Source: Gammaproteobacteria bacterium (GTDB lineage: Bacteria; Pseudomonadota; Gammaproteobacteria; Steroidobacterales; Steroidobacteraceae). From it: a stretch of DNA of 64,000 bases. Numbering within the stretch: position 1 is the stretch's first letter; every line of letters starts with the position of its first letter. Position numbers and translations under genes: made by a program. The DNA is taken from NCBI GenBank assembly GCA_013289615.1, contig JABCZO010000001.1:1-64000 (forward strand), in the 5' to 3' direction. The notes beneath the pieces were generated by a model. That model saw only the letters and a list, made by a program, of their open reading frames with translations. It searched no databases and was not told the origin of the DNA. This document shows positions 50,663 to 56,829 of this stretch, one piece after another.

Positions 50663-52051
50663 ATGACTACCGCCGCCACCGCACAGCTGCCGATGAGCGT
50701 GCTGGACGACGACGCCTGGGACGATCTGCTCAGCTTCATCGAGGAGCGGCGCGTCATTCCGATCCTGGGGCCGGAACTGCTGCAGGTCGCCACCGACCGA
50801 GGTCCGCGCCTGCTGTACGACTGGCTGGCCGAAAAGCTCGCGGGACGGCTCAATGTAGACGTATCGCAGCTGCCGCAGCCCTACACGCTCAACGACGTGG
50901 TCTGCTGGTTCCTCGGCGCCCGCGGCCGGCGCGAAGAAGCCTACGTGCGATTGCGCAGTATTCTCAAGGACGCGGCCTTCGAGCCGCCGCGGGCACTGCG
51001 CCGCCTGGCGGCGATCCCGGAGTTCGACCTGTTCGTGTCCACCACTTTCGACCCGCTGCTCGAGGCCGCAATCAACCTGGAGCGTTTCAACGGCGCCTCG
51101 TTCACCGAGGTGCTGTCGTATTCGCCCAATCGCGTGGTCGACCTGCCTTTCGAGCGCGACCGCCTGCAGCGGCCGGTGGTGTATCACCTGTTCGGCCGGC
51201 TCTCGGCCTCGCCCAGCTACGTGATCTCCGATGAGGACCTGCTGGAATTCATCTGCGCGCTGCAGAGCGAACACCTGGCGCCGGAGAAATTGTTCCACGA
51301 GCTCGAGCACAACCACCTGTTGTTCATCGGCAGCAATTTCACCAATTGGCTGGCACGCCTGTTCCTGCGCATGGCCAAGCGCCAGCGGCTTTCCGACCCG
51401 CGCGATGTCGGGGAAATCATGGCCGACGATCACACCAGCGAGGACGAGCGGCTGGTGTCGTTCCTGCAACAGGTGAGCGTACGCACCCGGATCTACCTGG
51501 GGGCCGAGCGCTTCGTCGACGAGTTGCACGTGCGCCTCGCGGCGCGCCGCAAGCCGGTAGCCGCCGCGGTGCGCGCCGGTGCGCCGACCCGCTTCCTGCC
51601 GCCGGCACGCGAGATGCCCGACAACGCCGTCTTCATCAGCTACGCACGCGAAGATCTTCCCGCCGTGCAGCAGATCAAGGCCAGCCTGGAAGCCGCCGGC
51701 ATCACGATCTGGTTCGATATGGACCGGCTGGAAGCCGGCGATGACTACGACCGCAAGATTCAGCGCAACATCGCGCGCTGTTCCTATTTCATACCGGTGG
51801 TCTCGGCGACCACGCAGCGGCGCCTGGAGGGCTACTTCAGGCGCGAGTGGAGTTACGCGATCGATCGCGCGCGCAACATGGCCGATGGTGCGCTGTTCAT
51901 TGTGCCGGTCACGATCGACGCCACCAGCGCCGCCGAAGCGCTGGTACCGGACAAATTCAAGGCGTTGCACTTCAACCAACTACCGGGCGGCGCCGTGCCG
52001 GCCGATTTCGCGCAGCGGCTGGGCGACTTCACGCGGGCGCGGCAGCAGTGA
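50663..52051 (+). CDS. SIR2-like + TIR domain protein
   Basis: N-terminal SIR2-like ('LLSFIEERRVIPILGPELL', 'DLFVSTTFDPLLE', 'VVYHLFGRLS', 'LLFIGSNFTNWLARLFLRM'); C-terminal TIR ('AVFISYAREDLPAVQQIKASLEAAGITIWFDMDRLEAGDDYDRKIQRNIARCSYFIPVVS', 'GYFRREWSYAID'). Confidence 0.85.
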   Translation: MTTAATAQLPMSVLDDDAWDDLLSFIEERRVIPILGPELLQVATDRGPRLLYDWLAEKLAGRLNVDVSQLPQPYTLNDVVCWFLGARGRREEAYVRLRSILKDAAFEPPRALRRLAAIPEFDLFVSTTFDPLLEAAINLERFNGASFTEVLSYSPNRVVDLPFERDRLQRPVVYHLFGRLSASPSYVISDEDLLEFICALQSEHLAPEKLFHELEHNHLLFIGSNFTNWLARLFLRMAKRQRLSDPRDVGEIMADDHTSEDERLVSFLQQVSVRTRIYLGAERFVDELHVRLAARRKPVAAAVRAGAPTRFLPPAREMPDNAVFISYAREDLPAVQQIKASLEAAGITIWFDMDRLEAGDDYDRKIQRNIARCSYFIPVVSATTQRRLEGYFRREWSYAIDRARNMADGALFIVPVTIDATSAAEALVPDKFKALHFNQLPGGAVPADFAQRLGDFTRARQQ

Positions 52052-55791: not shown

Positions 55792-56829
55792 GTGGCACTG
55801 CACCAAGTCATTCAGCGCCTGCTGCTCATCGGTGTGAAGATCCAGACCCCGCCTCCACCGGCGCCGCCGCAACCGCCCAAGCGACTGCTGACACTGATCG
55901 AGTCGCTCGCCGCCGCGCACCGCAGGTTCGATCAGCGCGCCATCCATTTCGGCCACCGTTATCGCAGCGGCTTCTGGGCCATCTACCTGCTCAGCGCCAT
56001 CGCGGTGCTGTGCGCGGTGATGCCGCTGGCACTCGGATGGGACAGCACCAGCCACGCGATGCATCCGTATTCGGGGCTCTGGGCCATCGCCGAAGTGATC
56101 GTGATCGGCAGCGTGAGCGCGATCTACTGGCTGGGACATCGGCACGACTGGCAGGGCCAGTGGCTGCGCGCGCGCACCACCGCAGAGCTGACCTGGTACC
56201 TGCCGCTGATCGCACCGTTGCTCGACTTCTCGGCGCCCCAGGCGCAGGCGAACTGGTACCTGCGGGTACTCGATCCGGGGCAGCACCTGCGCGGCATAGA
56301 CGATGTGGCGGCGCTGTGCGCGCGCAACGAGTCGCTGGCGCGCGAACTGCTTGGCGAGGCCTGGGCGGATCCGGAATTCATCGTCAGCTACGCGCAGTGG
56401 ACCATCGACATATTGCTGGCGCAGAAGCACTATCACGCCCGCATTGCCGTGCGCCAGCATGCGCTGCTGCATCGGGTTCACCGCGTGACCAGCGGACTGT
56501 TCGGCCTGACGGCGCTCGGCGCGCTGCTGCATCTGCTGATTCATACGCTCTGGCTGTCGCTGGTCACCACCTTTTTCCCGGCGCTGGCTGCGTCGCTGCA
56601 TGGCGCGCTGGCGCAATCCGAAGCCTATCGGCTCGGCGCAACCTCGGAGCGACTGATGGTCGAACTGCACGGTGCGATCGAGGATGTGCGCAAGGCCCTG
56701 GCCGAACTGCCACAAGTGCGTCGCGTGGAGGCGCTCAAGGCGTCGGTCCAGGCCGCGATCGCACTGATTCTGGAGGAGCACCAGGATTGGCACATGCTGG
56801 TGCGCCCGCACCATCTGCCGCTCGCCTGA
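55792..56829 (+). CDS. SLATT/DUF4231-like multi-TM protein
   Basis: ORF 55711..56829, probable GTG start at 55792; TM-like 'GFWAIYLLSAIAVLCAVMPLAL', 'LWAIAEVIVIGSVSAIYWLG' then 'HDWQGQWLRARTTAELTWYLPLI', and 'SGLFGLTALGALLHLLIH...LSLVTTFFPALAASLHGALAQSEAYRLGATSERL'. Confidence 0.7.
   Translation: MALHQVIQRLLLIGVKIQTPPPPAPPQPPKRLLTLIESLAAAHRRFDQRAIHFGHRYRSGFWAIYLLSAIAVLCAVMPLALGWDSTSHAMHPYSGLWAIAEVIVIGSVSAIYWLGHRHDWQGQWLRARTTAELTWYLPLIAPLLDFSAPQAQANWYLRVLDPGQHLRGIDDVAALCARNESLARELLGEAWADPEFIVSYAQWTIDILLAQKHYHARIAVRQHALLHRVHRVTSGLFGLTALGALLHLLIHTLWLSLVTTFFPALAASLHGALAQSEAYRLGATSERLMVELHGAIEDVRKALAELPQVRRVEALKASVQAAIALILEEHQDWHMLVRPHHLPLA

What the first reader, a model, noticed from the sequence alone, without database searches (positions are those of the whole stretch)
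50663..56829. Four-gene SIR2-like/TIR - nSTAND1 - duplicated-PGD - SLATT-like operon: candidate novel NAD-linked immune or signalling system
Seen: four same-strand ORFs, the first two junctions overlapping by 4 nt (GTGA at 52048 and 55314), the third with a 7-nt gap. Established: TIR and SIR2 domains are NADase/nucleotide-signal modules in bacterial defence (Thoeris, short pAgo systems), STAND NTPases act as pathogen sensors, and SLATT proteins are predicted pore-forming effectors. Inference: nSTAND1 as sensor, SIR2-TIR as NAD-derived signal producer or depleter, SLATT-like protein as membrane effector, PGD protein as adaptor or regulator. I do not recognise this four-part set as a named system.
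Basis: partly seen in the sequence, partly recalled or inferred. Interest (0 to 1): 0.88.

Follow-up and report, generated by a model that had tools for sequence, protein, structure and literature searches.

The report
STAND–TIR signalling operon with swappable effectors
A widespread but, as far as I could find, unnamed two-gene bacterial alarm (a membrane sensor plus an NAD-cutting TIR enzyme) here carries a predicted pore-forming partner; elsewhere its sensor half and its partner genes are exchanged for others, as in immune systems.

Summary
The four ORFs are real, at the stated coordinates and junctions. The conserved unit is gene pair A–B, not the four-gene set: B follows A in all 77 of 80 GTDB loci whose contig continues (Gamma-, Betaproteobacteria, Opitutae). 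A is a SIR2-like/TIR fusion whose SIR2 half has lost its catalytic signature (GAG→GPE, Asn→Thr/Ser, His→Phe/Leu; 200 homologues), while the putative TIR catalytic Glu (E395) is invariant; a SIR2 NADase is not supported. B is an intact nSTAND1 NTPase, one transmembrane helix (59/59 homologues), then a fast-evolving TPR array exchanged between lineages (AU test 2e-12). C is a double PGDYG domain (PF14083), confidently modelled, no PDB fold match; D is a tandem SLATT-like membrane protein. C–D is an accessory module: fused in three loci, unlinked from A–B in two genomes that have both; other loci have SLOG-like–SLATT, TPR-S–cyclase or TIR–TPR genes in its place. Best reading: B senses at the membrane and activates A's TIR, which makes an NAD-derived messenger read by PGDYG to open SLATT. 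Not in PADLOC, not in defence islands; no function tested. New variant of a known kind.

The parts
50663..52051 (+). Gene A: SIR2-like/TIR fusion protein, 462 aa
   Evidence: 77/77 homologous loci with room have B next
51029..51433 (+). SIR2_2-like domain of A (aa 123-257); catalytic Asn position = Thr128 (51044-51046), His position = Phe177 (51191-51193), and GAG replaced by GPE upstream (aa 36-38): predicted inactive
51629..51958 (+). TIR_2 domain of A (aa 323-432); putative catalytic Glu395 at 51845-51847, invariant in 200/200
52048..55317 (+). Gene B: nSTAND1 NTPase - one TM helix - TPR array, 1089 aa
52114..53346 (+). nSTAND1 domain (aa 23-433), Walker A GQSGLGKTS at 52231-52257; Walker A and B key residues conserved 59/59
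53395..53451 (+). Transmembrane helix of B (aa 450-468), present in 59/59 homologues; net positive charge on the NTPase side
53545..55257 (+). TPR sensor region of B (aa 500-1070), fast-evolving and exchanged between lineages
55314..55784 (+). Gene C: double PGDYG-domain protein (PF14083), 156 aa, putative ligand sensor for D
   Evidence: fused to D in L064, L131, L156
55792..56829 (+). Gene D: tandem SLATT-like (SLATT_1/DUF4231) membrane protein, 345 aa, putative membrane effector
55171..56832 (+). Block (3' end of B plus C-D) shared with the orthologous place in congener G004 C59, where the rest of A-B is gone

Best explanation
A STAND-controlled, NAD-linked alarm. Protein B is anchored by one TM helix: its NTPase faces the cytoplasm and its variable TPR array (probably periplasmic) senses a trigger. 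ATP-driven oligomerisation of B clusters protein A through A's conserved, catalytically dead SIR2-like scaffold, switching on A's TIR NADase, which depletes NAD+ and/or makes an ADP-ribose-type messenger. In this operon the messenger is read by the PGDYG protein C, which gates the SLATT-like membrane protein D, permeabilising the membrane (growth arrest or death). Other operons plug in SLOG-like-SLATT, TPR-S-cyclase or TIR-TPR outputs instead. Shown by sequence: domain make-up, active-site state, TM helix, A-B linkage, module exchange, C-D fusion, TPR exchange. Inferred: topology, oligomerisation, messenger, gating and the biological role (conflict or defence).
For: A-B adjacent in 77/77 loci with room, mostly 4-nt overlaps. 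TIR Glu 200/200; SIR2 catalytic positions replaced in 200/200. Walker A Lys and Walker B Asp 59/59. TM in 59/59 with positive-inside bias, paired p=2e-10. TPR column identity 0.16-0.39 against 0.6-0.87 for the NTPase; the clade found with A (SH-aLRT 98) is rejected by TPR data (p 2e-12) but not by NTPase data (p 0.39). Modules after B in 52 loci with room: 9 C-D, 8 TPR-S-cyclase, 8 TIR-TPR, 1 SLOG-like-SLATT (with L049 moved to C-D on the evidence). TPR-S is predicted to sense NAD-derived signals (own knowledge, Burroughs and Aravind 2020, not readable here); SLATT is predicted to be ADPr-derivative-regulated and to neighbour TIR genes (PMC9503650). C-D fusions. A D homologue sits by a patatin gene.
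Against: No defence-island context: of 70 flanking genes scanned, most are housekeeping. Half of the A-B loci with room (26/52) have no recognised effector next to B, so A-B must be able to act alone. SLATT assignment of D is below curated cut-offs. PGDYG ligand binding is a guess by position. Topology rests on hydropathy and charge only. A's structure model is of moderate confidence (pLDDT 70).
Confidence: 0.42

Rival explanations
1. Two separate systems that happen to be neighbours: A-B is a self-sufficient TIR NADase suicide system (NAD+ depletion is the output), and C-D is an independent membrane or transport module that hitch-hikes.
For: 26/52 A-B loci have no recognised module; C-D stands alone in G014, and unlinked from A-B in G004 and G104.
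Against: D is found in 4/13 A-positive against 1/87 A-negative relatives (Fisher p 8e-4, not corrected for phylogeny); in the two unlinked cases A-B is still in the genome; other predicted nucleotide-signal effectors take the same place.
Confidence: 0.25
2. An envelope-stress or developmental signalling pathway rather than immunity: the B TPR senses a periplasmic cue and A's TIR makes a second messenger for ordinary regulation (class III cyclase in other loci).
For: TM helix with a probably periplasmic TPR; cyclase partners; housekeeping neighbourhoods.
Against: Patchy presence (13/100 relatives with near-full-length A), tandem duplicates, sensor exchange, loss of A-B in a congener, pore-like SLATT partners.
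Confidence: 0.25
3. A degenerate or selfish locus without current function.
For: Decayed copies exist (G060 lacks A and D; L086 B split).
Against: Strong purifying selection on A and the B NTPase; intact ORFs; thousands of homologues.
Confidence: 0.03

Closest known systems
AVAST type 5 (Avs5), SIR2-STAND antiphage protein (PMC12931631)
   Same: STAND NTPase with C-terminal repeats as sensor controlling an NAD-linked effector; SIR2 fold similar.
   Different: Avs5 is one protein whose SIR2 hydrolyses NAD+; here the SIR2-like domain is decayed, the TIR is the likely enzyme, enzyme and sensor are two genes, and B has a TM helix.
Thoeris (TIR ThsB + SIR2-SLOG ThsA)
   Same: TIR messenger logic and SIR2-type fold.
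   Different: SIR2 and TIR are fused in one protein, SIR2 inactive, STAND present, output through PGDYG-SLATT; PADLOC ThsB models match only the TIR domain weakly.
Short pAgo SPARTA/SPARSA
   Same: TIR and SIR2 folds.
   Different: No Argonaute or APAZ found in the operon.
nSTAND1/EAD conflict systems and TIR-SLATT pairs described by the Aravind group (PMC7159879, PMC8195603, PMC9503650)
   Same: nSTAND1 domain, exchangeable effectors, TIR with 2TM SLATT.
   Different: No EAD identified; a fixed SIR2-like/TIR partner and a TM-TPR B protein; this set was not found in the passages read.
TPR-S systems (PF20308; Burroughs and Aravind 2020, own knowledge)
   Same: A TPR-S-cyclase gene follows B in 8 loci.
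   Different: In this window its place is taken by PGDYG-SLATT.

Membership tests
SIR2 NADase (DSR2, ThsA, Avs5 type) | SIR2-type fold | tested here: met
   Pfam SIR2_2 3e-12; Foldseek E down to 7e-8
SIR2 NADase (DSR2, ThsA, Avs5 type) | Catalytic Asn (TTN) and His (HG) | tested here: not met
   Thr/Ser 200/200 and Phe/Leu 200/200 at the aligned positions
TIR NADase | TIR fold and catalytic Glu | tested here: met
   TIR_2 9e-20; E395 200/200; its identity as the catalytic Glu is by motif position
TIR NADase | NAD+ cleavage | not testable with these tools
   needs an assay
nSTAND1 NTPase | nSTAND1 profile with Walker A and B | tested here: met
   123.5 bits against cut-off 27.1; 59/59
PGDYG (PF14083) | Profile match above curated cut-off | tested here: met
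   69.5 bits against 27
SLATT (2TM effector) | Profile match above curated cut-off | tested here: not met
   D 27.2 bits against 41; 33/33 family members match at E up to 0.01, best 1.4e-8; 12/33 match PF18181: the works-like claim stands, membership is remote
SLATT (2TM effector) | Two-TM units | tested here: inconclusive
   Hydropathy: two TMs at aa 63-81 and 96-114, and one broad stretch at 232-266 read as a second pair; no topology program run
Avs5 | SIR2 and STAND in one polypeptide, active SIR2 | tested here: not met
Thoeris | Separate ThsA (SIR2-SLOG) and ThsB (TIR) | tested here: not met
   SIR2 and TIR fused; no SLOG hit in the window's four proteins
Any PADLOC-DB 2.0.0 system | Model match over most of the protein | tested here: not met
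   Only partial TIR matches for A and weak ones for B; none for C, D
Antiphage defence system | Protection against phage | not testable with these tools
   no assay; neighbourhood not defence-rich

The most novel reading that the evidence does not exclude
A membrane-spanning STAND receptor with a recombining periplasmic TPR sensor uses a dead sirtuin as the assembly scaffold for a TIR messenger enzyme, and drives plug-in effectors through a new class of NAD-derived-signal receptor, the PGDYG domain, coupled to a SLATT pore.
Probability: 0.25. Interest if true: 0.85.

Novelty: new variant of a known kind. Interest (0 to 1): 0.68.

Why it matters
It is common in soil and freshwater Proteobacteria and Opitutae (over 4,000 A-related protein clusters, counting TIR-only matches), yet I found no name for it in PADLOC, NCBIfam or the open literature searched. 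If the model holds, it adds a receptor-type (membrane-anchored) STAND to bacterial NAD signalling, shows a sirtuin fold turned from enzyme to scaffold, and gives the PGDYG family, also seen in phages, a testable role as a nucleotide sensor. The fixed core with exchangeable outputs makes the messenger question directly testable.

Tried and rejected
Obligate four-gene system: rejected, C-D missing from most A-B loci. SIR2 NADase: rejected on active-site loss. Plasmid-borne system: only three plasmid records, none close. Defence island: not supported. Conserved leader ORF before A: none seen; sigma-70 promoter scan found none, and two terminator-like sites, no more than in shuffles. PGDYG fold match in PDB: none significant. 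Literature on PGDYG and on SIR2-TIR: nothing in the held library.

Full report
Observation. The four same-strand ORFs exist exactly as described, with two 4-nt overlaps and one 7-nt gap. Pfam gives SIR2_2 and TIR_2 for A, nSTAND1 for B, PGDYG for C, and only weak SLATT/DUF4231 signals for D. PADLOC has no fitting system.

Core unit. Searches of 100 related genomes and of GTDB contigs show that A and B travel together. Of the 80 best GTDB loci, three end within or just after A; all other 77 have B next, usually with a 4-nt overlap, in Gamma- and Betaproteobacteria and Opitutae. Opitutae sequences nest among gammaproteobacterial ones in the A tree, which suggests transfer between phyla. A is found at near full length in 13 of 100 relatives, sometimes in several or tandem copies.

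Protein A. Against canonical SIR2_2 proteins from related genomes (GAG in two of the three, TTN(Y/F/W)D and HG in all three), A has GPE, TTTFD and LFG. Over 200 homologues the Asn position is Thr (198) or Ser (2) and the His position Phe (158) or Leu (42); His175 lies two residues upstream and is not the HG histidine by this alignment. The TIR positions examined, including E395, are invariant or nearly so. The rest of the SIR2-like domain is highly conserved, so it has a kept role; scaffold or ligand binding is inference. Foldseek of the moderate-confidence model (pLDDT 70) matches KomC, DSR2, Avs5 and SPARSA for the SIR2 part and SPARTA, SARM1 and RUN1 for the TIR part.

Protein B. The Walker A lysine and Walker B aspartate are kept in 59/59 homologues. 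A single TM helix follows the NTPase in all 59; the N-side flank is more positive (mean net charge 3.5 against 1.2, paired p 2e-10), so the TPR array is probably outside the cytoplasm. In 30-residue blocks the NTPase is 60-87% identical per column on average, the TPR region 16-39%. Between window and L049, dN is 0.07 in the NTPase and 0.61 in the TPR, whereas L052-L053 show 0.04 and 0.05. The group win-L049-L050-L052-L053 from the A tree (SH-aLRT 98) is not rejected by NTPase data (p 0.39) but is by TPR data (p 2e-12), where the window pairs with L056 at 100/100. Thus the sensor half appears to be exchanged between lineages.

Modules. Of 52 loci with 1.5 kb or more after B, nine carry C-D (eight plus L049, whose C the gene caller missed but tblastn found), eight a TPR-S-cyclase gene (one of them, L060, as second gene after B), eight TIR-TPR genes nearby, one (L110) a gene with an N-terminal region read by eye as SLOG-like (a vTSHRnL motif, no Pfam hit) followed by DUF4231 and SLATT_1, and 26 none recognised. 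On the A tree the module state changes at least 16 times. C and D are one ORF in L064, L131 and L156. In congener G004 the orthologous place keeps 147 bp of B's 3' end plus intact C-D, but A-B is gone; A-B sits elsewhere in that genome. G104 also has A-B and fused C-D apart. G014 has fused C-D and no full-length A found, in a 72% complete genome.

C and D. The AlphaFold model of C is confident (pLDDT 94), shows two similar halves, and has no significant PDB match; viral PGDYG proteins match. All 33 D relatives match SLATT_1 weakly (best 1.4e-8). A diverged D homologue in G046 lies next to a patatin phospholipase gene.

Mechanism. See best explanation. The messenger step leans on published predictions for SLATT (PMC9503650) and on my own knowledge for TPR-S; the 2020 TPR-S paper is not held. 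Nothing here shows that the system acts against phages, and neighbours are mostly housekeeping genes.

Verdict. Real, widespread, coherent, and not named in the sources searched: a new variant of STAND/TIR NAD-linked conflict systems. The absence of a description is limited to PADLOC 2023, NCBIfam, Pfam and the open-access library.

Noticed in passing
G000 C25:20750, C4:19416, C4:134489, C26:60938, C28:45696 (L002-L006): The window's genome has five more proteins with TIR domains 40-51% like A's; the two examined are a TIR-FGE-sulfatase and a TIR-TPR protein. The one on C28 has an internal TAA in the matched frame.
   Followed up: partly
L139 (G046:C134), 1369-5564: Tandem SLATT-like D homologue (29%) beside a patatin phospholipase and a protein with a SLOG-like vTGHRnL motif: a possible separate nucleotide-signal effector set.
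   Followed up: partly
L140 (G000:C9) 5286-5711, and similar genes in other relatives: Stand-alone ~141-aa PGDYG protein, 32-39% like C, outside any A-B context; in L140 next to a gene resembling an NADPH-dependent FMN reductase.
   Followed up: partly
window 50545-50559: AT-rich imperfect palindrome AACTATTAATAAGTT about 100 bp before A in an otherwise GC-rich region; possible operator or promoter.
   Followed up: no
L060: Contig labelled Mycobacteriaceae carries a proteobacterial-type A-B plus TPR-S-cyclase; probably a mislabelled or misbinned record.
   Followed up: no
L086, L138: Broken relatives: B split into two ORFs and a TAG in D's frame (L086 genome); B N-terminus, A and D missing (L138).
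   Followed up: no
L071, L077, L080, L100: Part of a second, diverged B lies directly upstream of A, as left by tandem duplication of the pair.
   Followed up: no
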